DNA of 11,251 nucleotides from Lachnospiraceae bacterium. Its GTDB lineage: Bacteria; Bacillota_A; Clostridia; Lachnospirales; Lachnospiraceae. How positions within the stretch are numbered: position 1 is the first letter of the stretch; the number at the start of each line of letters is the position of its first letter. Under the pieces are notes generated by a model. That model saw only the letters and a program-made list of their open reading frames with translations, had not been told where the DNA came from and searched no databases. The translations under genes and the position numbers were made by a program. The DNA is taken from contig JAILDD010000150.1 of assembly GCA_024689605.1 (NCBI GenBank), positions 1-11,251 of the forward strand, in the 5' to 3' direction. Positions 1 through 11,251 of the stretch are shown piece after piece.

Positions 1-383
1 CACAGGGTTCGCTCATAGCATTTGAAACAGGCGAAGCAGTTACCTACGGACTTTTCAATGCGCAGGGCCGCGGCCAGCTCTTTATCGGTCCCGGCGAGCG
101 TGTATACTCGGGCATGATAATCGGAGAAAATCCCAAGTCCGAAGATATAGAAGTAAATGTCTGCAAGAAAAAGCAGCTTACAAATACACGATCCTCAGGT
201 GCAGACGATGCGCTTAAGCTTGTTCCCCCCAAGATCCTTTCACTTGAGCAGTCCCTTGAGTTCATCGGAACAGACGAGCTGCTTGAAGTCACACCTGAGC
301 ATCTTCGCATACGCAAGAAGATTCTGGACCCCCTTAAGCGTAAACGTGCAGCAATCTCCGCTGCAGCTAAAACGACATCGTAA
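1..383 (+). CDS. typA: TypA/BipA ribosome-associated GTPase, C-terminal part (5' end outside window)
   Basis: The reading frame is already open at base 3 and ends at a TAA (381-383), giving about 126 C-terminal residues. It matches the end of the TypA/BipA translational GTPase: a segment reading QGRGQLFIGPGERVYSGMII, then a GENPKSEDIEVNV stretch, then LTNTRSSGADDALKLVPP, and finally SLEQSLEFI and DELLEVTPEHLRIRKK. This is the elongation-factor-like domain V plus the TypA-specific C-terminal domain that contacts the ribosome. The GTPase domain lies upstream, outside the window. TypA acts in the cytoplasm on 50S assembly and stress or cold adaptation; that role is family knowledge. The basic tail and its length are normal, so the gene seems intact at this end. 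A strong terminator follows 33 bp downstream. Confidence 0.95.
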   Translation, partial: QGSLIAFETGEAVTYGLFNAQGRGQLFIGPGERVYSGMIIGENPKSEDIEVNVCKKKQLTNTRSSGADDALKLVPPKILSLEQSLEFIGTDELLEVTPEHLRIRKKILDPLKRKRAAISAAAKTTS

Positions 384-415
384 GTTTTATTACTTCGATA
401 TATAACCTCCCCCCT

Positions 416-447
416 AAAGAGACCCGGATTCCGGGCCTCTTTTTTTG
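416..447 (+). terminator. Intrinsic terminator of typA
   Basis: The hairpin has arms AAAGAGACCCGG (416-427) and CCGGGCCTCTTT (431-442), loop ATT, and one A.C mismatch at 422/436. It runs into seven T residues (441-447). It lies 33 bp past the typA stop on the same strand, the standard arrangement for a Rho-independent terminator. Confidence 0.88.
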
Positions 448-450
448 CGA

Positions 451-480
451 AAAAAAAACAGCTGCAGAAAAATCTGCAGC
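451..480 (-). terminator. Intrinsic terminator of ilvE (minus strand)
   Basis: There is a perfect 8-bp inverted repeat, GCTGCAGA (461-468) and TCTGCAGC (473-480), with a 4-base loop. Read on the minus strand, the stem is followed after TG by nine U (A run at 451-459). It lies 38 bp beyond the ilvE stop. With the typA terminator it forms two separate back-to-back terminators between convergent genes, rather than one shared bidirectional one. Confidence 0.85.
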
Positions 481-518
481 CGTTCAAAAATCATTGCTAA
501 CGTTTTAAATTTAAATAC

Positions 519-1544
519 TTAGTCTATCTCGCAGATCCAGCCTTCAGGCGCTTCAAGTCTGCCCATCTGGATGCCTGTAAGAGTATCATAAAGCTTCTTG
601 GTTACAGGTCCCATATCTTCCATACCTGCAGGGAATGCGATCTCGCCGTCCTTGTAAACGATCTTGCCTACAGGTGAGATAACGGCAGCAGTTCCGCAGA
701 GTCCGCACTCAGCAAAATCCTTTACCTCTTCAAACTTAACTTCCCTATGCTCGACCTTAAGACCAAGGATATGCTCAGCCACATACATGATGGATCTTCT
801 TGTTATTGAAGGAAGGATTGAGTCAGACTTAGGTGTAACCACTGTGCCATCCTTTGTAACGAAGATGAAGTTTGCACCGCCGGTCTCCTCTACCTTTGTA
901 CGTGTTGCAGCATCAAGGTACATATTCTCGGCAAACCCGTTTGCATGTGCAGTAACTATTGCATGAAGACTCATTGCATAGTTAAGACCTGCCTTGATAT
1001 GACCTGTTCCGTGAGGTGCAGCTCTGTCAAAATCAGACACTGTAATGGTTATGGGCTTTGCGCCGCCCTTGAAGTAAGGTCCTACGGGTGTAGCAAAAAT
1101 CCTGAACTGATACTCATCAGCAGGCTTTACTCCGATAACCGGATTTGATCCGAACATATAAGGTCTGATATAAAGAGTTGCGCCTGAGCCATAAGGAGGT
1201 ACATATGCCTCATTTGCCTTAACAACTGCCTTAACAGCTTCTATGAATTTATCCTCGGGGAAAGGAGGCATCTCCAGTCTCAGCGCTGTATCGTGCATAC
1301 GCTTTGCATTGAGGTCAGGTCTGAAGCACACCGTGCGTCCATCTTCTGTGGTATACGCCTTAAGGCCCTCAAAACAGGTCTGGGCATACTGCAGGACGCC
1401 TGCGCACTCGTTCAATACGATATTCTCATCTTCGGTAAGACCGCCCTCTTCCCATGCGCCGTTTTTGTAATTAGCCACGAAACGCTTGTCAGTCTTCACA
1501 TAGCCAAAGCCTATTGAGGCCCAGTCGATATTCTTCTTTTCCAT
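519..1544 (-). CDS. ilvE: Branched-chain amino acid aminotransferase (PLP fold type IV)
   Basis: This enzyme moves the amino group between glutamate and the 2-oxo acids of Leu, Ile and Val, the last step of their synthesis and first of their breakdown, in the cytoplasm. The 341-residue product has the length of the longer (Bacillus/eukaryote-like) BCAT group. Visible marks include LQYAQTCFEGLKAY near residues 51-64, RPDLNAKRM, the YIRPYMFGSNP segment, and HIKAGLNYA with Lys184 as the expected PLP Schiff-base lysine. EETGGANFIFV is the motif before the cofactor phosphate region, and CGLCGTAAVISPV follows. An in-frame ATG exists at 1622 but has no SD and sits inside a hairpin. The ATG at 1544 follows AGAAAGGGGAATAAT and starts MEKKNIDWASIGFG like other BCATs, so I chose it. 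It is a single-gene unit with its own promoter, a structured leader and a terminator. Confidence 0.95.
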   Translation of the reverse strand: MEKKNIDWASIGFGYVKTDKRFVANYKNGAWEEGGLTEDENIVLNECAGVLQYAQTCFEGLKAYTTEDGRTVCFRPDLNAKRMHDTALRLEMPPFPEDKFIEAVKAVVKANEAYVPPYGSGATLYIRPYMFGSNPVIGVKPADEYQFRIFATPVGPYFKGGAKPITITVSDFDRAAPHGTGHIKAGLNYAMSLHAIVTAHANGFAENMYLDAATRTKVEETGGANFIFVTKDGTVVTPKSDSILPSITRRSIMYVAEHILGLKVEHREVKFEEVKDFAECGLCGTAAVISPVGKIVYKDGEIAFPAGMEDMGPVTKKLYDTLTGIQMGRLEAPEGWICEID

Positions 1545-1557
1545 TATTCCCCTTTCT

Positions 1558-1683
1558 GCCGCTTTTTGCGGCGTCGCGAAGAGAATTTGCGAAGGCAAAT
1601 TCTCTGATGCGATAAAGAACATTGTTGCCGCCTTGCGGCATCAATGTTCAGTTGAAAGAAATACCATCGGGTATTTCTTTCAA
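1558..1683 (-). repeat. Four contiguous hairpins in the ilvE leader
   Basis: Four inverted repeats stand almost end to end. (A) TTGAAAGAAATACC (1652-1665) pairs with GGTATTTCTTTCAA (1670-1683): perfect 14 bp, 4-base loop. (B) GAACATTG..GCCGC (1617-1631) pairs with GCGGC..CAATGTTC (1635-1649): two stem blocks with a small internal mismatch. (C) GAGAATTTGC (1581-1590) pairs with GCAAATTCTC (1595-1604): perfect 10 bp, extended by TCGC/GCGA at 1574-1577/1609-1612. (D) GCCGC (1558-1562) pairs with GCGGC (1568-1572). Gaps between them are 1-4 bases. On the minus strand all lie downstream of the predicted ilvE promoter and end just before its SD. None carries a T-run, so they do not look like terminators. 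B and D share the same GCCGC/GCGGC arms and could pair alternatively. Confidence 0.7.
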
Positions 1684-1736
1684 ACTCTTGCCTTTCCTTT
1701 TTTATTTAGCTTTTTGTTGAAAAAAACAACAAAGTC

Positions 1737-1765
1737 AGTTTATACCCGACTTTTTTCTATGTCAA
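1737..1765 (-). promoter_or_regulatory. Predicted sigma-A promoter of ilvE
   Basis: On the minus strand there is a perfect TTGACA -35 (1760-1765), a 17-base spacer, and a TAAACT -10 (1737-1742, 4/6 to consensus). Transcription would start near 1730, giving a leader of about 185 nt that contains the hairpin chain. Confidence 0.6.
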
Positions 1766-1775
1766 GACCGACATA
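1758..1775. promoter_or_regulatory. Inverted repeat overlapping the ilvE -35 box
   Basis: TATGTC (1758-1763) and GACATA (1770-1775) form a 6-bp dyad with a 6-base spacer. It covers the TTGACA box of ilvE and lies in the divergent ilvE/diguanylate cyclase control region. It could be an operator; the regulator is unknown, and a dyad this short may arise by chance. Confidence 0.3.
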
Positions 1776-1814
1776 AGTACCACATAAAAAAACTGTATAT
1801 GTTATGCAAACCTG

Positions 1815-1823
1815 TGATATAAT
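1815..1823 (+). promoter_or_regulatory. Extended -10 promoter for the diguanylate cyclase gene
   Basis: TGATATAAT (1815-1823) is a full TG-n-TATAAT extended -10 element. No good -35 is visible 17 bases upstream, which extended -10 promoters tolerate. The start would fall near 1830, leaving a 5' leader of about 50 nt. The leader contains CTTATTG (1831-1837) and CAATAAG (1865-1871), which could pair across a 27-base loop next to the SD. Confidence 0.55.
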
Positions 1824-1882
1824 TAAGAGACTTATTGAACTGTCCAAAAATCTTATTTTTTGAACAATAAGACGGGGTGAAT

Positions 1883-2974
1883 ATGAAATACATTTGGGAT
1901 TCAGTTGAAAAATTCCTTTTTGCGGATGTAAAAAACGAAAAAGAGACCAAGGATCTGGCTATCCTGATCAGACTGAACTGCCTTGTATTTTCCATATATT
2001 TCTTTTTCACCGGTCTACTGATTGCATATATGCAGCACTACGCCCTGGGCCTTGCAATGGCCGGCGCAGTAGGACTCACTGTAGGCGCATTCATATTCAC
2101 CTATGAGAATCGGACCATTCCCGGGCTCATCCTTCTGAACGGTGTGCTGATAGTATTTCCCGTTCTTCTGGCACTTTTTACCGGCTTCCAGTGCGGATAC
2201 CAGTACATACTTTTCATAAACATACTTCTTATGTATTTCAATAATACCGGAAATCCTCTGTATAAAAGGATTTATTCGGTAGTTTTGATGGCAGTCATCC
2301 TTATACTGGTTGAGCTGTGCCCGGAACTTCCACTGTTCACTACCCCGATTGGTTCATACCTCATATATGTGCAGTGCTTTAACGTAATAATATTGGGGGC
2401 CAGCATCCTGGTAACAGCATACTGCTACAGTACGAAGTTCAACCAGTCCGAAGAAAAACTGCGCCGCATAAATGAAAACCTTGAGCGTATGGCCAATCTC
2501 GATACCCTTACAGGTCTTTCAAACAGAAGACATATGAACGAATACCTTTCAGATGTCGTATACGAATATAACCACACCGGACACATATTTACCATTGCTA
2601 TAGGCGATATCGATTTCTTTAAGAAAGTAAATGATACCTACGGCCACGATACCGGCGACTATGTCCTGACTTCCGTGTCCGACATATTTAAGACTTTCAT
2701 GAAAAACAAAGGCCGGGTTGCAAGATGGGGCGGAGAGGAATTCCTCTTTGCATTTGAAAACATGAAAGCTGAACAGGCCTTTAAGGAACTTGACGAGCTG
2801 CGCAAGCAGATAGAAAGTACTCCCATGCAGTTCAAGGACTATGATTTCAAGGTAAGCATGACCTACGGCCTTGAGGAATTCAACCCCAGGCTCGGTATAG
2901 AAGCAACCATTAACCACGCCGACAAGAAGCTCTACGAAGGAAAGACCGGCGGCAGGAACCGGGTTGTGATGTAA
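1883..2974 (+). CDS. Membrane-bound diguanylate cyclase (6 TM + GGDEF)
   Basis: Predicted to make cyclic di-GMP from two GTP at the inner face of the membrane. The 363-residue protein has about six hydrophobic segments (roughly 27-51, 53-73, 79-100, 105-119, 129-147, 157-182). A short charged coiled-coil linker (about 185-205) follows, then a full GGDEF domain: DTLTGLSNRRHMNEYL opening, GDIDFFKKVNDTYGHDTGD with the metal- and GTP-binding Asp and Asn, and the active-site loop RWGGEEF (GGEEF at 283-287). The RxxD inhibitory site that normally precedes this loop by five residues is replaced by KNKG, so I-site product inhibition is probably absent. A GTG at 1877 is in frame, but GGGG at 1874-1877 is placed correctly for the ATG at 1883. 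The membrane sensor region matches no named domain that I recognise, so the signal is unknown. Confidence 0.92.
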   Translation: MKYIWDSVEKFLFADVKNEKETKDLAILIRLNCLVFSIYFFFTGLLIAYMQHYALGLAMAGAVGLTVGAFIFTYENRTIPGLILLNGVLIVFPVLLALFTGFQCGYQYILFINILLMYFNNTGNPLYKRIYSVVLMAVILILVELCPELPLFTTPIGSYLIYVQCFNVIILGASILVTAYCYSTKFNQSEEKLRRINENLERMANLDTLTGLSNRRHMNEYLSDVVYEYNHTGHIFTIAIGDIDFFKKVNDTYGHDTGDYVLTSVSDIFKTFMKNKGRVARWGGEEFLFAFENMKAEQAFKELDELRKQIESTPMQFKDYDFKVSMTYGLEEFNPRLGIEATINHADKKLYEGKTGGRNRVVM

Positions 2975-3057
2975 AAATCAATTCCGCCATTCTGCGCCAA
3001 TAGATTCTTTTACATGCCCTCAGCACTAAATGTTTCGGACTGTTCTGAATAGTTATA

Positions 3058-3546
3058 CTATACCCTCTTGTATGTAACAAAATTATATTCCAGATCAAAA
3101 TAAGTCTGCTCTTCCCCTTCGTTTACTATCTTCCACTCTTCGGATTTATCCAGATTCGGGAAATACGCATCTGCAGCATATTCCATATTTATCTTTGTGA
3201 CGATAGCGGTATCGCAGTAAGGAAGCATCTGCTCATATATGCTTGCGCCTCCGATGATATATACATCATTGCTATCATACTCTTTTACCTTTTCAAGCAG
3301 TTCCTTCACAGAATGAACCACTATCGCATCCTTAACTGTCAGCGACTCGTCCCTGGACATGATTATATTTGTGCGGTTCTTAAGGGGGCGGCCTTCAGGG
3401 AATGTTGAAAGAGTCTTGCGTCCAAGCACCACCACCTTACCGGTGGTCTCCATGCGGAACATCTTGTGGTCCCCCGGGATGCTTACCAGCAGTTCCCCCT
3501 GATTGCCTATTGCCCAGTTATTGTCAGCCGCAACTATTATCTTCAT
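3058..3546 (-). CDS. folA: Dihydrofolate reductase
   Basis: Reduces dihydrofolate to tetrahydrofolate with NADPH in the cytoplasm. The 162-residue length is typical. Visible are the start MKIIVAADNNWAIGNQGELL and IPGDHKMFR with Asp26 at the place of the catalytic acid. VVVLGRKTLSTFP is the NADPH-binding GR(K/H)T segment, and NRTNIIMSRD, VYIIGGASIYEQMLP (the GG cofactor loop) and the C-terminal strand FVTYKRV follow. The start follows AGGAGGAG (3552-3559) at a 5-base spacing. It is last in the minus-strand cluster, 33 bp after thyA, whose product dihydrofolate is its substrate; the pairing is functionally coherent. No strong terminator is visible between it and the convergent cyclase gene. Confidence 0.96.
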   Translation of the reverse strand: MKIIVAADNNWAIGNQGELLVSIPGDHKMFRMETTGKVVVLGRKTLSTFPEGRPLKNRTNIIMSRDESLTVKDAIVVHSVKELLEKVKEYDSNDVYIIGGASIYEQMLPYCDTAIVTKINMEYAADAYFPNLDKSEEWKIVNEGEEQTYFDLEYNFVTYKRV

Positions 3547-3579
3547 TCAATCTCCTCCTGCCGAATAAAGGCTATAAAT

Positions 3580-4428
3580 TTAAATAGCTATAGGAATATT
3601 CTCTATCTGAGGCTCTGTTTCGTAGCCTATAACCTTCACATCATCCCTAGTAAATTCATAGAAATCATGGATATCCGGATTGATCCAGAATTCAGGTGCG
3701 GGATGTGTAGGTCTTTCTATCAGCTCTTTTATAATGTCCACATGCCTGTCGTAAATGTGGGCATCCGCTATCACGTGAACCAGTTCCCCCACCTTCATAT
3801 CACACACCTGAGCCAGCATATGTACCAGAACTGCATACTGAACCACGTTCCAGTTATTTGCCGCCAGGACGTCCTGTGAACGCTGATTAAGTATTGCATT
3901 CAGAGTCAGCTTGTCATCCCCTTTCTTTTGGGTGACATTGAAGGTCATGCTGTATGCACAGGGATAAAGATGCATCTCGCTAAGGTCTGCGTGCACATAC
4001 ATGTTCGTCATGATACGTCTGCTGAAAGGATTATTCTTCAGGTCATAGATCACACGGTCAGTCTGGTCCATCATACCTTCTTTATACTTATGCTTTACCC
4101 CCATCTGATAGCCGTAGGCCTTGCCTATGGAACCTGTTTCATCAGCCCAGGAATCCCAGATATGGCTGTGCAGCTCGTGGATGTTATTGGACTTCTGCTG
4201 CCATATCCAGAGCATTTCCTCCGTGGCAGACTTAAGTGCAGTCTTCCTTACGGTAATGATAGGAAACTCCTTCGTAAGATCATAGCGGTTCACTACACCA
4301 AATCTCTTTATTGTATACGCAGGTGTTCCGTCTTCCCAGTGCGGACGAACCTTCTCTCCTTCCGTGCTGGTACCGTTTTCCAGAATGTCCCTGCACATAT
4401 CCTTGAACATATCATCTGCCATGCTCAT
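3580..4428 (-). CDS. thyA: Thymidylate synthase, Bacillus ThyA/phi3T-like class
   Basis: Methylates dUMP to dTMP using methylene-tetrahydrofolate and releases dihydrofolate. The 282-residue product shows ITVRKTALKSATEEMLWIWQ (about 58-77), HIWDSWADETGSIGKAYGYQ, NNPFSRRIMT with the phosphate-binding arginines, YPCAYSMTF with nucleophile Cys157, and QRSQD (182-186). NNWNVVQYAVL supplies the base-binding Asn, and the C-terminus ends PIAI. The residue after the catalytic Cys is Ala, not the His of the common PCH motif, and the QF after it is TF. From memory, this variant is shared with B. subtilis ThyA and the phage phi3T enzyme (TPCVYETQW), so it marks that class rather than a defect. The start is supported by AGGAGG at 4437-4442 with 8-base spacing. 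It lies 56 bp after aroF. Confidence 0.96.
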   Translation of the reverse strand: MSMADDMFKDMCRDILENGTSTEGEKVRPHWEDGTPAYTIKRFGVVNRYDLTKEFPIITVRKTALKSATEEMLWIWQQKSNNIHELHSHIWDSWADETGSIGKAYGYQMGVKHKYKEGMMDQTDRVIYDLKNNPFSRRIMTNMYVHADLSEMHLYPCAYSMTFNVTQKKGDDKLTLNAILNQRSQDVLAANNWNVVQYAVLVHMLAQVCDMKVGELVHVIADAHIYDRHVDIIKELIERPTHPAPEFWINPDIHDFYEFTRDDVKVIGYETEPQIENIPIAI

Positions 4429-4484
4429 GACCTTTTCCTCCTCATACTTGTTGTTATTCCCCCACGTAACAGTCCGGAGATTCC

Positions 4485-5513
4485 TCAGACTGCATCCGCA
4501 ATGTCAAAAATAAGCTTCTCAGAAGCAGCCCAGCCAAGGCAGGGATCGGTTATCGACTTTCCGTAAATGCCCTCCCCTATCTTCTGCGAGCCTTCCTTGA
4601 TATAGCTCTCTACCATCACACCCTTTACCAGGCTGCGGATGTCAGGATTGATCCTCCTTGAATGTAGTACCTCGCTTACTATCCTGGGCTGCTCGTCAAA
4701 TCTCTTTCCGGAATTAGAATGGTTCGTATCTATAATGCAGGCAGGATTGATAACATCTGCCTCGTCATACAGCTCCCTTAAAAGCGAAAGGTCCTCGTAA
4801 TGATAGTTCGGTATGGACCTTCCGTGCTTATTGACCGCACCCCTGAGAATAGTGTGGGCATAAGGATTTCCGCTGGTCTTTACCTCCCAGCCCCTGTAAA
4901 TAAATGAGTGAGGATGCTGGGCAGCATGTATGGAATTGAGCATTACGGAAAGATGTCCGCTAGTGGGATTCTTCATTCCTGCCGGCACATCAAAACCGCT
5001 TGCTGCCAGCCTGTGCTGCTGGTCCTCAACAGACCTTGCACCGATTGCCACATAGGAAAGTATATCCGACACATAGCGCCAGTTTTCCGGATAAAGCATC
5101 TCATCCGCACTGGTAAGTCTCGATTCCCGCATTACCCTGATATGCATCTGCCTCATGGCTATAAGGCCTTTCAGGAAATCCGGAGCCTCAGTGGGATCCG
5201 GCTGTGAAGATATGCCCTTATATCCGTCACCTGTGGTGCGGGGCTTGTTGGTATATACTCTAGGTACAAGGATGAGCTTGTCCTTAACCTGCTCTGCCAC
5301 TTCCGACAGCCTGTTTGTATAATCCACAACAGCCTCTTCATTATCCGCTGAGCAAGGGCCTATTATAACCAGAAACTTATCGCTCCTGCCGGCTATCACA
5401 TCACAAATTTCCCTGTCTCTCTTTTTCTTGAATTCCTGAAGCTCCGCAGGAACAGGATACTGCTCCCTTATCTCTGTAGGTGTCGGCAGTTTTCTTACGA
5501 AATCAAAACTCAT
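4485..5513 (-). CDS. aroF: 3-deoxy-7-phosphoheptulonate (DAHP) synthase, class I AroF/G/H type
   Basis: Condenses phosphoenolpyruvate with erythrose 4-phosphate, the first step of the shikimate pathway to Phe, Tyr and Trp. The 342-residue protein follows the E. coli AroFGH pattern. It shows LVIIGPCSADNEEA with metal-ligand Cys54, ILVPRVYTNKPRTTGDGYKG (PEP binding, KPRTT near 90-94), GARSVEDQQHRLAASG, GMKNPTSG, HTILRGA, DTNHSNSGK (metal His), GVMVESYIKEG (metal Glu), and YGKSITDPCLGW (metal Asp). It has the N-terminal extension of about 45 residues involved in feedback control in this class, but which amino acid inhibits cannot be read from the sequence. An in-frame TTG at 5531 exists, but AAGGAG lies inside that extension and is placed 7 bases before the ATG at 5513, which fixes the start. 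The paralogue letter is a convention. Confidence 0.95.
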   Translation of the reverse strand: MSFDFVRKLPTPTEIREQYPVPAELQEFKKKRDREICDVIAGRSDKFLVIIGPCSADNEEAVVDYTNRLSEVAEQVKDKLILVPRVYTNKPRTTGDGYKGISSQPDPTEAPDFLKGLIAMRQMHIRVMRESRLTSADEMLYPENWRYVSDILSYVAIGARSVEDQQHRLAASGFDVPAGMKNPTSGHLSVMLNSIHAAQHPHSFIYRGWEVKTSGNPYAHTILRGAVNKHGRSIPNYHYEDLSLLRELYDEADVINPACIIDTNHSNSGKRFDEQPRIVSEVLHSRRINPDIRSLVKGVMVESYIKEGSQKIGEGIYGKSITDPCLGWAASEKLIFDIADAV

Positions 5514-5558
5514 ATGGCATCTCCTTATCAAGTACTTATGCTGTGTGCCTTCATTTGC

Positions 5559-5588
5559 TTAAATTAACGATAAATTTTCAGAACACAT
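5559..5588 (-). other. Possible 9-codon upstream ORF in the aroF leader
   Basis: GGAGGAACCA precedes an ATG at 5588 that opens MCSENLSLI and stops with TAA 45 bp before the aroF start. The SD is as good as those of neighbouring real genes. The peptide has no run of aromatic residues, so a classic aromatic attenuation leader is not supported. It may be chance or a translated leader. Confidence 0.3.
5573..5587. promoter_or_regulatory. Partial CodY-box-like sequence upstream of aroF
   Basis: AATTTTCAGAACACA agrees with the CodY consensus AATTTTCWGAAAATT at 12 of 15 positions, with a perfect left half. It lies in the only large gap of the cluster, 60-75 bp before aroF. CodY control of amino-acid genes is common in Firmicutes, but its presence in this organism is not shown. 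Confidence 0.25.
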
Positions 5589-5631
5589 TGGTTCCTCCAG
5601 TTACAATCAGCATTCCTTCGTCAAACTCCCC

Positions 5632-6564
5632 TCATTCAGTCTTCTCTGTCTTCTCAGTTTCTTCGGTCTTCTCAGTTGTTTCAACCCTTTCAGCTTTTCC
5701 TGCCTGATACGCCCTCACCCTGAAAAAAGTAATGAGTGCTGCTGAAATAATGAACAAAGTCATTCCCAGACACTGGGAAACTGCCAGGTTAGTTCCTGCA
5801 AATTTAAGCTGATCCGTACGGATTCCCTCTATAAAGAAACGGATGATGCCATATCCCCCCAGATACCAGAGGATGCACTCCCCGTCAAACTTTTTCTTTT
5901 TCCTGAAAGCGATTATTAGTATGAGAAGTATCAGGTTGGAAAAACTCTCATAAAGAAAAGTTGGATGAACCTGTATGTAATTGGTTCCCTCCACAATGTG
6001 AGCCTCTAAGTCTGCGCTTATGTCCCTGCCCCTGACCGCATCTATCGGAAGCCTCATTGCAAAAAGATTATCCGAGTATCCGCCAAAAACTTCCCGGTTT
6101 GTAAAGTTTCCCCAGCGTCCTATTATCTGTCCGGTAAGGGCCCCCAGCGCCGCAGTGTCCAGAAAAGCAAAGAGATTCTTTTTCTTCACCCGGCACCAGA
6201 TGAAAGCAGTAAGGAGGCCTGCCAGGACACCACCGTATATAGCCAGTCCCCCTTCCCTTATATTGATTATACTTGCCAGATTATCCTTGTAATAATCCCA
6301 AGAAAAGATCACATAATAGAGCCTGGCCCCTACAAGTCCGAACCCAAGTATCCACATGCCTGCATCATAAATATCGTCCGGGTTGTTTCCGTCCTTTTTC
6401 GTTATCGCAGCCATCAGTGTAAATGCGCATATCACACCAAAACCTATTATTGCGCCATATAATGCTATGGTCACGCCAAATATCTGAAAGCTTTTCGGAA
6501 CATTCTCCAGATAGATTCCCAAAAAAGGAAAGGCGATCGCTGTAACATCCATCCATTCGGGCAT
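5632..6564 (-). CDS. lgt: Prolipoprotein diacylglyceryl transferase
   Basis: Transfers diacylglyceryl from phosphatidylglycerol to the lipobox cysteine of prelipoproteins, in the cytoplasmic membrane. The 310-residue polytopic protein carries REGGLAIYGG (103-112) and the Lgt signature GRWGNFTNREVFGG (149-162) with Arg150 and Asn153. HPTFLYES (200-207) and FFIEGIRTDQL (243-253) follow, with about seven hydrophobic segments. The Tyr at 110, where E. coli has His103, is common in Gram-positive enzymes. The start ATG follows AAGAGG at a 9-base spacing. Its stop-to-start distance from ychF is 16 bp, so the two are surely cotranscribed. The C-terminus is unusual: after the last membrane segment it ends in a Thr/Glu/Lys tail, TEKTEETEKTEKTE, encoded by short tandem repeats. 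Confidence 0.95.
   Translation of the reverse strand: MPEWMDVTAIAFPFLGIYLENVPKSFQIFGVTIALYGAIIGFGVICAFTLMAAITKKDGNNPDDIYDAGMWILGFGLVGARLYYVIFSWDYYKDNLASIINIREGGLAIYGGVLAGLLTAFIWCRVKKKNLFAFLDTAALGALTGQIIGRWGNFTNREVFGGYSDNLFAMRLPIDAVRGRDISADLEAHIVEGTNYIQVHPTFLYESFSNLILLILIIAFRKKKKFDGECILWYLGGYGIIRFFIEGIRTDQLKFAGTNLAVSQCLGMTLFIISAALITFFRVRAYQAGKAERVETTEKTEETEKTEKTE
5635..5676 (-). repeat. Degenerate 9-bp coding repeat (Thr-Glu-Lys) at the lgt 3' end
   Basis: On the minus strand, ACTGAGAAG-type 9-base units repeat four times plus a partial copy, with single-base changes. They encode residues 297-310 of Lgt. The tail lies after the last membrane segment. The number of units could vary by replication slippage without breaking the frame. 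Confidence 0.6.
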
Positions 6565-6580
6565 TAATCTCTACCTCTTA

Positions 6581-7681
6581 TCACACATTGAACCTGAACA
6601 GGATCACGTCGCCATCCTTGACCACATAATCCTTTCCTTCCATACCCACAATGCCTTTTTCCCTTGCTGCAGCCAGGGATCCGTTATCCAGAAGATCCTG
6701 ATAGTTTACGACCTCAGCCTTTATGAAGCCTTTTTCAAAATCGGTATGTATCTTGCCCGCTGCCTGGGGTGCTTTTGTGCCTTCCTTTATGGTCCAGGCA
6801 CGGCACTCATCCTCACCAGCAGTCAGGAAGCTTATAAGCCCCAGCAATGAGTAACTTGCAGAAATAAGCTTATCAAGTCCGGAAGACTCCACGCCCAGAT
6901 CTGCTAAAAACTCAGTTTTCTCGGTATCGGAAAGCTCCGACAGTTCTTCCTCAAGCTTTGCAGAGATAACGAATACACCGTTACCCTCAGAAGCTGCCAG
7001 CTCCCTTACCTTTGCTACATACTGATTGCCTACGCCATCATCTGCCAGGTCATCCTCTGCCACATTAGCTGCATAGATCGTCTTCTTGGCAGTGAGCAGA
7101 TTATACTCAGCAAAAGTCTTCTGAAGTTCCTCATCCTCAGGCACCTCAAAAGTCCTTGCACTCTCTCCGGCATCCAGGTGTGCCTTAAGCTTTTCAAGCA
7201 TATCCACTTCCTTCTGAAGGGACTTGTCCATCTTGGCCTGCTTAGCTACCTTTGCATATCTGCGCTCAAGTATCTCTATATCGGAGAACACAAGCTCCAT
7301 ATTGATAGTCTCTATATCACGAACCGGGTCTACGGAACCGTCCACATGAATTACATTGGTATCCTCAAAACACCTTACCACATGGACAATGGCATCCACT
7401 TCGCGGATATTTGCAAGGAACTGGTTTCCCAGGCCCTCACCCTTGGATGCCCCCTTTACAAGTCCGGCGATATCAACGAATTCAATCGCAGCATGGGTAA
7501 CCTTCTTTGTATGGTACATCTCGCCAAGCTTCTCTATACGCTCGTCTGGCACCGGCACGATTCCCACATTGGGATCTATTGTACAGAACGGAAAGTTTGC
7601 CGCCTGTGCCCCCGCCTTCGTAAGTGAATTAAACAATGTTGACTTGCCCACGTTAGGAAGTCCCACGATTCCGAGCTTCAT
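6581..7681 (-). CDS. ychF: Obg-family ATPase YchF/OLA1
   Basis: A P-loop nucleotide hydrolase that binds ribosomes and, unlike most relatives, prefers ATP. Its cellular role (translation and redox stress response) is known only in outline. The 366-residue length is standard. The domains in order are the G domain with G1 GLPNVGKS (7-14), the switch I region NFPFCTID, and G3 DIAGLVKGASKGEGLG (from 70). G4 NVAE (206-209) is the YchF form that replaces NKxD and explains ATP preference. A helical coiled-coil insert lies around 133-195, and a C-terminal TGS domain (about 280-366) contains AWTIKEGTKAPQAAGKIHTD and ends DVILFRFNV. The SD AAAGGA lies 9 bases before the ATG. It is the first gene of the minus-strand cluster, directly behind the promoter at 7753-7781. 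Confidence 0.97.
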   Translation of the reverse strand: MKLGIVGLPNVGKSTLFNSLTKAGAQAANFPFCTIDPNVGIVPVPDERIEKLGEMYHTKKVTHAAIEFVDIAGLVKGASKGEGLGNQFLANIREVDAIVHVVRCFEDTNVIHVDGSVDPVRDIETINMELVFSDIEILERRYAKVAKQAKMDKSLQKEVDMLEKLKAHLDAGESARTFEVPEDEELQKTFAEYNLLTAKKTIYAANVAEDDLADDGVGNQYVAKVRELAASEGNGVFVISAKLEEELSELSDTEKTEFLADLGVESSGLDKLISASYSLLGLISFLTAGEDECRAWTIKEGTKAPQAAGKIHTDFEKGFIKAEVVNYQDLLDNGSLAAAREKGIVGMEGKDYVVKDGDVILFRFNV

Positions 7682-7938: not shown

Positions 7939-8526
7939 CTAGGGCCTTCGCAGCAATGCATTACGTATCTCATCAATCTCTGCCCTGTCATTGAACCTAT
8001 GCACCATGCAAAGATGTACTGACATACTGCCGTTTTCATCATTAACAGTAACGCTCACACCCACACCTGAACGAGTTGCTACCCTTACTACATCGGTGAT
8101 GCTGTCACGCCTGAGCACAGCTCAGTTTTTGATAAACAGATATTGCCTGCCAAGCCTAAACTGGTCGCCCATACAAGGCTGTGCCGATGCAAAATCACTG
8201 ATCATCATCCGTCCGCCGTCTTCAGCAATGAAGGAGTTGAGCCTTTTTGATGCTCCTACTCGATAACTGTAGGCAAGCCCGCAAAGAAACGCAAACACGG
8301 CACTTACTATGACACCTGCGGCTATAGCAAGCAAGAGACTCTCCCCGAGAACTGCAATGAAAAAGGTTATCAGCAAACCCGTAAGAACAGTGATCACAAC
8401 AGGGGCTACTCCCAGCTTAGGCACACGCATTACTTTGCAGTAGCTATATAAGGCATTACTTACCTGATTAAGCTGTTGCTCGTTCATCATCCCAGTAGCA
8501 TAGTATTCCTGATTCAATTGTGACAT
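7939..8526 (-). pseudogene. Two-TM membrane protein gene interrupted by an in-frame TGA
   Basis: The frame starting at 8526 runs 134 codons to TGA (8122-8124). It then continues in the same frame for 60 codons to TAG (7939-7941). The part after the TGA reads AVLRRDSITDVVRV, then alternating strands VGVSVTVNDENGSMSVHL, then a helix DRAEIDEIRNALLRRP. Together with GDQFRLGRQYLFIKN just before the stop, this looks like one continuous PH-like beta domain ending in a helix. A single G-to-T change of a GGA (Gly) codon would create the TGA, and Gly fits this turn. The simplest reading is a recent nonsense mutation. Other genes here (lgt, aroF, ychF) end in TGA, so the code is standard. I do not recognise a named family. 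Confidence 0.65.
8122..8526 (-). CDS. Small two-TM membrane protein, 134 residues as currently readable
   Basis: This is the part of the interrupted gene that would be translated. A hydrophilic helix of about 35 residues (MSQLNQEYYATGMMNEQQLN) is followed by two hydrophobic segments (about 41-62 and 65-90) separated by GES, then a cytoplasmic stretch. An upstream TTG at 8595 is in frame, but AGGAGG (about 8538-8543) lies 11 bases before the ATG at 8526, which I take as the start. The protein stops inside what should be the C-terminal beta domain, so it is probably not fully functional. Function unknown. Confidence 0.55.
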   Translation of the reverse strand: MSQLNQEYYATGMMNEQQLNQVSNALYSYCKVMRVPKLGVAPVVITVLTGLLITFFIAVLGESLLLAIAAGVIVSAVFAFLCGLAYSYRVGASKRLNSFIAEDGGRMMISDFASAQPCMGDQFRLGRQYLFIKN

Positions 8527-8684
8527 CTGCGTTGACACCTCCTGTAATGATGAATTGCGGCTTGCCGGCTTGACTCGTGCCCCAGCGGCGGTCAAATGAT
8601 ATTATCACGCTTCCGTCGCCGCTTCATTCTCAATGCGGTAGAAATCCATAATCGATTATCCTGCTGATTTTTTCCCATTAAAAC
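8527..8684. other. Spacer between the tRNA-Ala and the broken membrane gene, with a 14-codon ORF
   Basis: On the minus strand an ATG at 8649 with CAGGA nine bases upstream opens MDFYRIENEAATEA, then two successive stops (TGA, TAA at 8602-8607). It is in frame with the membrane protein gene downstream and may be a leftover of an older or longer gene start. The spacer also holds a perfect 12-bp palindrome ATAATCGATTAT (8648-8659) and a GCGGCG/CGCCGC stem (8585-8590/8617-8622) with TGATATTATCA in its loop. Confidence 0.3.
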
Positions 8685-8757
8685 TGGAGCATACGGGGTT
8701 CGAACCCGTGACCTCAACACTGCCAGTGTTGCGCGCTCCCAGCTGCGCCAATGCCCC
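8685..8757 (-). tRNA. tRNA-Ala (anticodon GGC)
   Basis: A 73-nt cloverleaf folds on the minus strand. The acceptor GGGGCAT pairs with ATGCTCC and includes the G3.U70 wobble that is the alanine identity element. The D arm is GCGC-AGCTGGGA-GCGC. The anticodon arm is CAACA-CTGGCAG-TGTTG with anticodon GGC (reads GCC). A 5-nt variable loop AGGTC and the T arm ACGGG-TTCGAAC-CCCGT follow, with discriminator A. CCA is not encoded and must be added. It lies 41 bp beyond the stop of the chimeric ORF and may be read from that transcript; no convincing promoter of its own is visible. Confidence 0.96.
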
Positions 8758-8798
8758 TAAATTTGATATCCCAAATCCTTCTATCTCGTAAAAAGTTT

Positions 8799-9491
8799 TT
8801 ATCCCCAATCAAACGTAATAAGCCCATAAACATATAGGCCCAAAGTCAGAATCGGAACAAGATACTTAAATATAAGTTTCATCCAGCTTTGTATCTTCAG
8901 ACCTTTACCGCTGTTTGCTTCAGCGACAAATTCATCCCATCCCCAGCCGAATTTATAACAGCAAAAAACGCTAAAGACAAAGGCTCCCAGCGGGAGAAGG
9001 TTTGTACTGACAATGAAATCCCAAAAATCCAGCCATGCGCTTCCTTCCGCAAAAGGCTGAAAATGCAGAACACTATATCCCAAAGCCGTGGTTGAAGACA
9101 GTAATGCTATTACCACGGCACAGACACCGCACCCAACCGGACGCTTCCAGCCTGTCAGTTCTCGTACGCTCGCAAGTATTCCTTCGAAAACACCTAGCTC
9201 TGTCGAAAATGCCGCAAATACCATAAACAGGAAGAATAAACTGCCCCATATTCTTCCGCCTTTCATATTATTGAAGACATTAGCCATTGTATCAAAAAGC
9301 AGAGAGGGTCCAGCATTTACCTCTATGTCAAAGGTGAAACAAGCCGGAAAGATTATGATCCCCGCTAATATGGCAACAAAAGTGTCCAGAAAAATAACGT
9401 TTAATGATTCCCCTAAAATACTTCTTTCTTTACCGACATAACTTCCGAATATTGCCATTGCGCCGATGCCAATGCTAAGGGAGAAAAAAGC
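8799..9491 (-). pseudogene. 3' fragment of a neurotransmitter:sodium symporter (NSS/SNF family) gene
   Basis: About 230 codons match the second half of bacterial NSS transporters of the MhsT/LeuT type. TM6 is AFFSLSIGIGAMAIFGSY, TM7 has LDTFVAILAGIIIFPACF, and TM8 has FAAFSTELGVFEGI, the region of the second sodium site. TM9 follows WKRPVG, TM10 has DFIVSTNLLPLGAF, and TM11 has FKYLVPILTLGLYVYG. It ends without a twelfth segment, as several bacterial members do. The first five segments are missing; the reading frame is otherwise clean. Confidence 0.8.
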
Positions 9492-9731
9492 CTTATTCAT
9501 TGCATCATATAATCCCTCATCTTTTTCCGAGATTATACGAAAGGGAATATTTCTTTCCTTAAAACGTTCCCTGTATCCTTCTGCAATTTCAATTGTACGA
9601 TCATCCGAACCGCCGTCCTGTATCAGATATTCATACTCAGTAAAATCCTGATCCAGAACAGAGTCCATGGTAAATTCAATATCCTTTTCCGCATTTAGAC
9701 ATACGGTAATCACAGATATCAGAGTCTTCAT
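8799..9731 (-). CDS. In-frame chimera: glycosyltransferase family 2 N-terminus fused to sodium symporter C-terminus
   Basis: A single open frame of 310 codons contains two unrelated families. Residues 1-80 are the start of a GT-A glycosyltransferase: SVITVCLNAEKDIEFTMDSV, the nucleotide-binding QDGGSDDRT and SEKDEGLYDAMNK. From residue 81 (AFFSLSIGIGAMAIFGSYVG) to the end it is the C-terminal half of a neurotransmitter:sodium symporter, with TM6 to TM11. The glycosyltransferase lacks its second half (acceptor site), and the symporter lacks TM1-TM5, including the unwound TM1 that binds Na+ and substrate. Neither activity is expected. The start overlaps the histidine kinase stop by ATGA (9728-9731), so it is probably translated by coupling. 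Causes to consider are a deletion joining two genes or an assembly error. The membrane topology of such a protein would be abnormal. Confidence 0.85.
   Translation of the reverse strand: MKTLISVITVCLNAEKDIEFTMDSVLDQDFTEYEYLIQDGGSDDRTIEIAEGYRERFKERNIPFRIISEKDEGLYDAMNKAFFSLSIGIGAMAIFGSYVGKERSILGESLNVIFLDTFVAILAGIIIFPACFTFDIEVNAGPSLLFDTMANVFNNMKGGRIWGSLFFLFMVFAAFSTELGVFEGILASVRELTGWKRPVGCGVCAVVIALLSSTTALGYSVLHFQPFAEGSAWLDFWDFIVSTNLLPLGAFVFSVFCCYKFGWGWDEFVAEANSGKGLKIQSWMKLIFKYLVPILTLGLYVYGLITFDWG
9492..9731 (-). pseudogene. 5' fragment of a family 2 glycosyltransferase gene
   Basis: Eighty codons carry the first half of a WcaA-like GT2 domain. The normal LYDAMNKG continuation breaks off exactly at LYDAMNK. 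A complete enzyme of this kind would be about 240-330 residues. Which sugar it used cannot be told. Confidence 0.75.
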
Positions 9732-10975
9732 ACTTTCTTAACCAGCAGTTCCACTACAAATCCCTCATCGTTGTAGTATTCGAAGCCGCCGCCCTGTTTT
9801 TCCATGTAGAGATTTACAAGATACATTCCCAGGCCGTAACCGTTTTTATCCTTTGAATTCGTGCCCCTGTAGTACTTTTCTACTAAAAGGGGAATCTCTT
9901 CCTCTGAGACACCGGGGCCGTTGTCCCTTATGGTTATCTTTACAAATCTGTCCTTCTTCCCGTCATCCGAGGCAGTGATCTCAGTCTCCTTGAAGGAAAC
10001 GTGTATATCAGTACCTGCATACTTATAAGAATTCCCGATCACATTATCGATCACCTGCTCCATCCTGAGCCTGTCCATATATACCAGACAGCCCGGAATA
10101 TGGTTTTCCATTATGATCTTACCGTACTCCTTGAGGTTTGTTATGAATCCTTCAATATCAGTCGACGGATACTCATCGATTGACAGAGTGACTTCCTTCA
10201 TATCGTCAATGGTTGCGTGAAGGACATTCTGCACCAGCTCCTGTATTGTTGCAGCCTTCTTAGTTATATAGCCTACCTTCTCCTCAAGATTTTCAATCTC
10301 GGCATACCTGTCCGCAAGCACTCCCTGCATATTATCCGCGGTACCGTCGGAAGGAACTTCCTCCGCTGCTCTGCCCGCATCATCAGAGCCGGAGCCAGCT
10401 TCTGCCATCAGCTTCTCCAGCTCTTCCTTCTTCCTTGATATCTGCATCTCCAGGACTTCGCAGGTAGCCTGTATGGTAGCCACCGGAGTCTTAAGGTCAT
10501 GGCTTAATTCGGCCACCAGCTGTTTCTTGGCATTTTCCGCCTCAATCTCACGCCGTTTGGATGCCCGCAATTCCTCCCTCATGATATCGAAGCCCTCGGA
10601 AAACTCCACGAAGCTGTTGTTCTTTTTCATGGGAAGGGGTACATCAAGATTCCCTTTTGCGATTTCCTCCGCAAATTTCTGAAGCTCCATTATGGGCTTA
10701 AGTTCTCTGAAATATATCACCAGCAGCAGGACATACCCGGCAATCATCATCAGAGCCCAGATGTACACCGTAAATATGAAGGTCTGCTCCTTGTACATAT
10801 CCACGGAATTGCTCATATGATCCCAGATCTGCTTGTATACCTTAAGCTCTTCATCAGTATATGAGTCCGGTACCCTTTGGGCAAAACTAAGACTTTTGTG
10901 CAGACCAAAGATAACAAGCAACACAACACCCATAAAAAATGTATATAAGAGCGCTATTTTCTTTAACCCCTTCAT
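9728..10975 (-). CDS. Sensor histidine kinase of a two-component system
   Basis: A 415-residue membrane kinase that should phosphorylate the response regulator encoded just upstream. It has a short N-terminus, TM1 (about 7-27), an extracytoplasmic loop of only about 38 residues, TM2 (about 66-89), and a HAMP-like linker (90-140). The DHp domain follows with H-box ELSHDLKTPVATIQA (phospho-acceptor His159), then the N-box VIDNVIGNSYKYA (Asn311, Asn315), G1 DNGPGV (351-356), YYRGTNS, and G2 NGYGLGMYLV. The small sensor loop suggests sensing within the membrane or through a partner. Odd is a roughly 40-residue Gly/Ser/Asp/Glu-rich stretch (about 185-225) between the two DHp helices. The start has GGAGGAG eight bases upstream and overlaps the regulator stop by ATGA (10972-10975). 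Confidence 0.93.
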   Translation of the reverse strand: MKGLKKIALLYTFFMGVVLLVIFGLHKSLSFAQRVPDSYTDEELKVYKQIWDHMSNSVDMYKEQTFIFTVYIWALMMIAGYVLLLVIYFRELKPIMELQKFAEEIAKGNLDVPLPMKKNNSFVEFSEGFDIMREELRASKRREIEAENAKKQLVAELSHDLKTPVATIQATCEVLEMQISRKKEELEKLMAEAGSGSDDAGRAAEEVPSDGTADNMQGVLADRYAEIENLEEKVGYITKKAATIQELVQNVLHATIDDMKEVTLSIDEYPSTDIEGFITNLKEYGKIIMENHIPGCLVYMDRLRMEQVIDNVIGNSYKYAGTDIHVSFKETEITASDDGKKDRFVKITIRDNGPGVSEEEIPLLVEKYYRGTNSKDKNGYGLGMYLVNLYMEKQGGGFEYYNDEGFVVELLVKKV

Positions 10976-11251
10976 TCGGAAGACTCCTCCAGTATGTATC
11001 CGGTTCCCCAGATAGTCTTGATTATCTTCGGATCATTTGGATTAACTTCCAGCTTTTCCCTGAGCTTCCTTATATGCACATTAAGTGTTCCGTCAGAATA
11101 GAAGGTATCACCCCATACTTCCTCAAAAAGGGCATCCTTGGTAACTATAGTATTTTTATGGGAATATAAGCATTTTAGAAGTGCAAATTCCTTTGCCTTA
11201 AGGCTGATATGCCGCCCCTCCACTACCACCGACATGGTAGCATCTTCAATC
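10972..11251 (-). CDS. OmpR/PhoB-family response regulator, C-terminal part (5' end outside window)
   Basis: The frame runs off the right edge. About 92 codons are visible and end EESSE at TGA. They form a winged-helix DNA-binding domain: VVVEGRHISLKAKEFALLKC, then NTIVTKDALFEEVWGD. The recognition helix region is GTLNVHIRKLREKLE, and the wing is IKTIWGTGYILEE. The receiver domain with the phosphorylated Asp is outside. It is the partner of the kinase downstream, to which it is translationally coupled. Target promoters cannot be inferred from this window. Confidence 0.94.
   Translation of the reverse strand, partial: IEDATMSVVVEGRHISLKAKEFALLKCLYSHKNTIVTKDALFEEVWGDTFYSDGTLNVHIRKLREKLEVNPNDPKIIKTIWGTGYILEESSE

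What the first reader, a model, noticed from the sequence alone, without database searches (positions are those of the whole stretch)
8799..9731. Seamless in-frame fusion of half a glycosyltransferase to half a sodium symporter
Two families with no functional link are joined with no frame loss at LYDAMNK|AFFSLSIG (about 9486-9497). Both halves are well conserved and end at a natural module edge (before TM6). The join could be a recent deletion between two genes, with a short shared sequence such as AAGGCTTTT as the crossover. It could also be an assembly chimera, or a new membrane-tethered GT fragment. It lies 41 bp from a tRNA gene and is translationally coupled to a histidine kinase, so it is likely to be expressed.
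Basis: partly seen in the sequence, partly recalled or inferred. Interest (0 to 1): 0.7.

Follow-up and report, generated by a model that had tools for sequence, protein, structure and literature searches.

The report
Two broken genes joined in frame
The start of a sugar-transferring enzyme gene runs straight into the end of a sodium-driven transporter gene; it looks like a recent accident at a short stretch that the two genes share, leaves both proteins without key parts, and is most likely an ordinary dead gene rather than a new kind of protein.

Summary
Window 8799-9731 (-) is one 310-codon ORF: residues 1-80 are the start of a GT2 glycosyltransferase, residues 81-310 the end of an NSS (SNF) symporter. 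No second fusion appears among the hits listed. Both parents exist whole elsewhere (GT 275 aa, 99% identical over the shared part; NSS 446-452 aa, 88-91%). The join lies in a 15-nt stretch that GT and NSS share at 13 of 15 bases in 3 of 5 NSS relatives compared (12 of 15 in the other 2); the crossover is inside AGGCT (9489-9493). The stretch is in the same codon phase in both genes (A-M-N-x-A), which explains the kept frame. One relative, G402, has the two-component genes and the ychF-to-BCAT block in the same order and orientation, about 4 kb apart, so the two sides probably come from one locus. That locus is variable: what follows the kinase differs between relatives. Most likely a short-homology deletion in a Lachnospiraceae-like genome left a non-functional chimera. 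A library or assembly chimera remains possible (about 30%): one contig, no reads, and the two sides differ in nearest relative. A working new protein is unlikely, since most of the GT domain and NSS TM1-5 are missing.

The parts
9494..9731 (-). 5' part of a GT2 glycosyltransferase gene (first 79 codons plus the first base of the Lys codon), start overlapping the kinase stop
   Evidence: Pfam Glycos_transf_2 profile 1-74/168; intact 275-aa P0121 is 99% identical over the shared part
9489..9503 (-). 15-nt short homology shared by the two parent genes; exact shared core AGGCT at 9489-9493 holds the crossover
   Evidence: alignment with NSS relatives, intact GT of G405 and G417, ranking of registers
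8799..9488 (-). 3' part of an NSS/SNF symporter gene (TM6 to the C-terminus) with its stop
   Evidence: Pfam SNF profile 252-484/524; blastn similarity to intact NSS loci ends at 9503 or 9504 in 78 of 80 loci (9473 and 9493 in the other two); MhsT alignment 218-446
9728..10975 (-). histidine kinase, upstream of and overlapping the GT start
   Evidence: Pfam HATPase_c and HisKA; 4 of 35 genus genomes hold it at 86-89% aa over its whole length
10972..11251 (-). 3' part of the response-regulator gene, cut by the contig end
   Evidence: 98.2% DNA identity to G405 over 280 bases
8685..8757 (-). tRNA-Ala (GGC), 41 bases after the fusion ORF
   Evidence: ARAGORN, Rfam RF00005 62 bits
7939..8523 (-). 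small gene X with an in-frame stop; intact homologues of 194-207 aa in relatives
   Evidence: tblastn of the 194-aa G002 protein, 71% identity across an internal stop (ORFs)
6581..7681 (-). ychF, syntenic anchor: in G402 the kinase lies about 4.1 kb upstream of it in the same orientation
   Evidence: TIGR00092

Best explanation
A recent recombination joint in a variable locus. The ancestor had RR-HK-GT with a full 275-codon GT, and further along on the same strand a full NSS gene before tRNA-Ala, gene X and ychF. A deletion, by replication slippage or RecA-independent annealing, between two imperfect 15-nt direct repeats (GCaATGAATaAGGCT in the GT, GCcATGAAycAGGCT in the NSS) removed the GT 3' part, whatever lay between, and the NSS 5' part. 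Because the repeat codes A-M-N-x-A in the same phase in both genes, the frame survived. The product could be translated with the kinase operon but should have neither GT nor transport activity. Shown: the fusion, the parents, the shared stretch, synteny with one relative (G402). Inferred: the ancestral order, the mechanism, expression, the lack of function.
For: Intact GT 99% identical and intact NSS 88-91% exist; the 119 other hits listed (of 7994) carry SNF without GT2, and the 119 other hits listed (of 137) carry no SNF, by precomputed Pfam. Crossover in AGGCT inside a shared stretch, 13/15 with L002, L003, L005, among the best 1-6 of about 360,000 same-phase pairings. HK-GT with the 4-base overlap is intact in G405 and G417. 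G402 contig C4 is collinear with pieces of window 2-7681 and with 9728-11250, same order and strand. The locus is variable: 2 of the 4 genomes with a close kinase have this GT after it, the other 2 have other ORFs. Gene X beside it also carries an in-frame stop. Deletions between repeats under 30 bp by slippage are a known route (PMC2884548, passages read; PMC5426353, abstract and outline read).
Against: One contig, no reads, no second strain with the joint. No genome was found that holds GT and NSS together in the supposed ancestral order; the NSS half matched over its length in 3 of 35 genus genomes (G002, G004, G005), and none of these gave a GT match at E 1e-40. Synteny rests on one genome. 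The left side is closer to G402 (BCAT 91%, ychF 89%) than to G405/G428 (80-82%), while the kinase is about 82% from all four: a two-source contig would also give this. The NSS half shows no sign of decay (dN/dS 0.06-0.08; one departure at otherwise invariant sites), which says only that the event is young or not real.
Confidence: 0.62

Rival explanations
1. Library or assembly chimera: a template switch at the short homology, or a misjoin between strains or species, placed kinase-GT DNA next to NSS-tRNA-ychF DNA. No cell carries the fusion.
For: The window is a single 11,251-base contig for which no genome is held; the joint lies 1.76 kb from the contig end; an intact GT 99% identical exists; left and right sides differ in their nearest relative; template switching also favours short homology (general knowledge). 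Chimeric contigs are noticeable even in simple simulated metagenomes (PMC3100316, abstract and outline seen).
Against: G402 has the same two blocks in the same order and strand about 4 kb apart; a random join landing like that is of the order of 1 in 1000 (my rough estimate, not computed), though a mix-up of strain variants of one locus would not need that luck. The shared stretch has 5 exact bases at the crossover, 13 of 15 in all, short for a k-mer misjoin (assembler and k unknown). The kinase incongruence has another possible explanation: the G402 and G417 kinase loci are 97-98% alike while matched stretches upstream are 71-83%, so alleles seem to move there.
Confidence: 0.31
2. A new, selected fusion protein: the GT half works as a soluble sugar-nucleotide-binding or regulatory head tethered by the NSS transmembrane half.
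For: Open frame, kept translational overlap with the kinase, no visible decay in the NSS half.
Against: No second instance in the listed hits or the kept loci. The GT lacks the second part of its domain (profile 74 of 168) and the NSS lacks TM1-5. The predicted fold is poor (pLDDT 55, pTM 0.30), though the intact NSS with a shallow alignment also gave pLDDT 57 (pTM 0.63), so this test is weak.
Confidence: 0.03
3. Insertion rather than deletion: a segment with the NSS 3' part, tRNA-Ala and gene X arrived by horizontal transfer and joined the GT at the short homology.
For: The NSS is 86% identical in G001 and G003, whose housekeeping matches are 66-73% identical, so it seems to move between lineages; it is also closer to G002, G004 and G005 (83-85%) than BCAT (73-75%) or thymidylate synthase (77-79%) are, although among those three genomes the three genes differ about equally; gene X is nearer to G002 (82%) than to G402 (74%); the tRNA has no close match in 35 genus genomes but 77-88% matches in plasmid and phage records.
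Against: Gene X and NSS lie on different contigs in G002 (C112 and C322), so they are not shown to travel together. None of the 11 window proteins scanned for families is an integrase; I did not look for a second boundary.
Confidence: 0.04

Closest known systems
Deletions between short direct repeats (short-homology illegitimate recombination, replication slippage)
   Same: Joint inside a repeat under 30 bp shared by both parents; one hybrid copy kept
   Different: The repeat is imperfect (13/15 with 3 of 5 relatives) and the deleted segment is not seen; the frame was kept because the repeat is in the same codon phase
NSS/SNF sodium symporters (MhsT 4us3, LeuT 2a65)
   Same: C-terminal half from TM6 on, aligned to MhsT 218-446
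   Different: TM1-5 are absent
GT2 glycosyltransferases (nearest solved by sequence 9omm/9omh; intact P0121)
   Same: N-terminal half of the GT-A domain, residues 1-80
   Different: The rest of the domain is absent, including the stretch N-A-G-D of P0121 that I take (recalled, from no call) as the metal-binding motif

Membership tests
GT2 glycosyltransferase | complete catalytic GT-A domain | tested here: not met
   Pfam profile 1-74 of 168 only
GT2 glycosyltransferase | N-terminal half of the domain | tested here: met
   46.9 bits against a cut-off of 23.3; 99% to P0121
NSS/SNF symporter | TM1-5 repeat with the Na+ and substrate sites of TM1 (role recalled) | tested here: not met
   Pfam profile begins at 252 of 524; MhsT alignment begins at 218 of 455
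NSS/SNF symporter | second half, TM6 on, without decay | tested here: met
short-homology deletion joint | short repeat shared by both parents at the joint | tested here: met
   13/15 with NSS of L002, L003, L005, 12/15 with L001, L004; relatives' sequences, not the true parents
short-homology deletion joint | both parents in one locus, same strand, in an undeleted relative | tested here: inconclusive
   RR-HK and ychF are one locus in G402, but no genome with GT and NSS together was found
short-homology deletion joint | reads span the joint | not testable with these tools
   no reads held
conserved fusion-protein family | same architecture in more than one genome | tested here: not met
   none in the 119 other listed hits (of 7994) and the 119 (of 137); 80 of 80 kept loci (of 277 relatives) have the usual NSS sequence at the joint

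The most novel reading that the evidence does not exclude
The fusion is expressed with the two-component operon and its GT head, anchored by the remaining NSS helices, has been co-opted, for example to bind a sugar nucleotide at the membrane for the glycosyltransferase locus that follows the kinase in G405 (further GT-like ORFs there are judged by eye, not tested).
Probability: 0.02. Interest if true: 0.55.

Novelty: new member of a known kind. Interest (0 to 1): 0.15.

Why it matters
As a protein it probably does not matter. As an example it shows how two unrelated genes can fuse in frame without selection: when the shared stretch at the joint encodes the same residues in both, the frame is kept automatically. 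It also warns against reading a lone two-domain protein from one contig as a new architecture.

Tried and rejected
Conserved fusion family: rejected as far as the lists go, no second instance; P0086, which covered 97% of the query, is a plain NSS whose extra alignment is weak. A random join of two genomes: made unlikely by synteny with G402, not excluded. Detecting decay in the NSS half: no signal; the GT half (80 codons) gave dN/dS 0.07 and 0.27 against G405 and G417, which have 0.14 between them, too few codons to judge. AlphaFold2 of the fusion against the intact NSS: both poor with shallow alignments, so not used as evidence. A viral copy: no exact junction match and no relative in viral contigs. 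Plasmid protein search of the gene X ORF: none. The GT search in 397 genomes of the family gave at best 57%. Promoter scan of 8500-9000: none found; two terminator-like sites against a mean of 0.5 in shuffles, not used. Literature: one search found no paper with all its four terms; the 12 papers listed of 264 had nothing that I judged on point. Searches (8 of 88 listed; 8 of 114 listed) led to three papers: PMC5426353 and PMC3100316, abstracts and outlines only, and PMC2884548, passages only. I did not search for a report of this very fusion, so I make no claim about print.

Full report
The ORF at 8799-9731 (-) is as described: 310 codons, GT2 on residues 6-82 and SNF on residues 75-307, each above its Pfam cut-off but each only part of its profile, 1-74 of 168 and 252-484 of 524. 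The window appears to be the whole contig: the fusion protein and the kinase are both listed with one contig of 11,251 bases, and no genome is held for it.

Both parents exist whole. P0121 (275 aa) is 99% identical over the GT part and continues DAMNKAAGSAEGEW where the fusion turns to DAMNKAFFSLSIG. NSS relatives of 446-452 aa (L001-L005) are 88-91% identical over the other part. In one search, 7994 candidates were scored and 120 listed; the window is one, and the other 119 carry SNF without GT2. In one search, 137 of 149 candidates passed and 120 were listed; the other 119 carry no SNF. All 80 loci kept of the 277 relatives in genome contigs have the usual NSS sequence at the joint, with Q where the fusion has K.

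The joint. On the coding strand the window reads GCAATGAATAAGGCT-TTTTTC. The intact GTs of G405 and G417 read GCAATGAATAAGGCT-GCCGG, and the five NSS relatives L001-L005 read GCCATGAAyCAGGCT-TTTTTC. The base at 9494 is GT-type and the T run NSS-type, so the crossover lies in AGGCT, 9489-9493. Among all 15-nt pairings of GT and NSS in the same codon phase (about 360,000 per pair of genes; two GTs and five NSSs compared), the junction has 13/15 for L002, L003 and L005, reached 1-6 times, and 12/15 for L001 and L004, reached 11-26 times. In windows of 18-21 nt the junction is less outstanding (8-389 equal or better in phase), so the homology is confined to about 15 nt. These are relatives' sequences, not the true parents.

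Same locus? A search of 35 genomes of the genus of G004 with the whole window found G402 contig C4 collinear with window 2-384, 450-1545, 1688-3575, 3584-4443, 4484-5556, 5664-7681 and 9728-11250, all in the same orientation. In G402 the kinase and ychF are about 4.1 kb apart with other ORFs between; in the window they are 2.05 kb apart with the fusion, tRNA-Ala and gene X between. No other genome was shown to have both blocks on one contig. Kinases at 86-89% identity occur in 4 of 35 genomes, G402, G405, G417 and G428; the GT follows in G405 and G417 with the 4-base overlap, not in G402 or G428. In the protein tables two kinase/GT pairs share a longest-contig length (P0246 and P0127, 26,543; P0249 and P0123, 3,969), which suggests the same neighbourhood. 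The region after the kinase is thus variable. Alleles also seem to move there: G402 and G417 are 97-98% alike over RR and HK but 71-83% in the longer matched stretches upstream, and the window is 97.5-100% identical to G405 at 11012-11251, 93-95% at 10772-11011 and mostly 74-85% from 10771 down, with one indel-rich block at 59%.

Against this, the sides differ in nearest relative: BCAT and ychF are 91% and 89% to G402 and 80-82% to G405 and G428, while the kinase is about 82% to all four. A contig of two sources would show this too. The exchange of alleles noted above is my explanation; it is not proof. The nearest kinases found are P0241 (96%) and the partial P0251 (98% over 82%); they come from other sources than P0121, so a same-strain kinase-GT contig was not shown.

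The NSS looks like a roaming gene: 86% identical in G001 and G003, whose housekeeping matches are 66-73%, and matched over the NSS half at 83-85% in only 3 of 35 genus genomes (which scored at most 9 candidates a genome). Among G002, G004 and G005 the NSS (91-97%) differs about as much as BCAT (92-94%) and thymidylate synthase (88-93%), yet the window's NSS is closer to them (83-85%) than its BCAT (73-75%) or thymidylate synthase (77-79%).

Function. The fusion has no complete GT domain and no TM1-5; the nearest solved NSS aligns from MhsT residue 218 on, and the joint is next to LeuT Q250. Selection cannot be judged: dN/dS of the NSS half is 0.06-0.08 against L001-L005, which have 0.04-0.14 among themselves, and it departs at one otherwise invariant site (80 others: mean 0.19, maximum 3). 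Structure prediction was uninformative. Host: the nearest named NSS records are ruminant-gut MAGs filed as Lachnospiraceae or Oscillospiraceae; that the window is of this kind is inference.

Verdict: a true observation with an ordinary cause. Most likely a young short-homology deletion that killed both genes and kept the frame because the shared stretch is in phase in both; next most likely a chimera made in the library or by the assembler; a working fusion is a remote possibility.

Noticed in passing
window 7939-8523 (-): Gene X, a small gene with hydrophobic stretches by eye and no Pfam or NCBIfam match for its ORF, has an in-frame stop; intact homologues of 194-207 aa exist in G002, G340 and G402.
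   Followed up: partly
window 8685-8757 (-): tRNA-Ala(GGC) has only weak matches in 7 of 35 genus genomes (75-80% over 45-58 bases) but 77-88% matches over 73-91 bases in plasmid and phage records, among them Butyrivibrio proteoclasticus pCY186: perhaps carried in by a mobile element.
   Followed up: partly
window 10770-11251: Identity to G405 rises from about 82% to 97.5-100% towards the contig end, inside HK and RR: an allele-exchange tract or a second source at the contig end.
   Followed up: partly
L115:2262-4225 and L116:853-2816 (G402, G417), RR-HK: 97-98% identical RR-HK in two genomes whose longer matched upstream stretches are 71-83% identical: recent exchange of this two-component locus.
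   Followed up: partly
window 1530-1700: The stretch upstream of BCAT matches many places in each of four relatives at 71-96%: a dispersed intergenic repeat.
   Followed up: no
P0004 (385 aa): An NSS record with an internal repeat of its TM6 region (AMNQAFF occurs twice), itself perhaps a chimera or local duplication.
   Followed up: no
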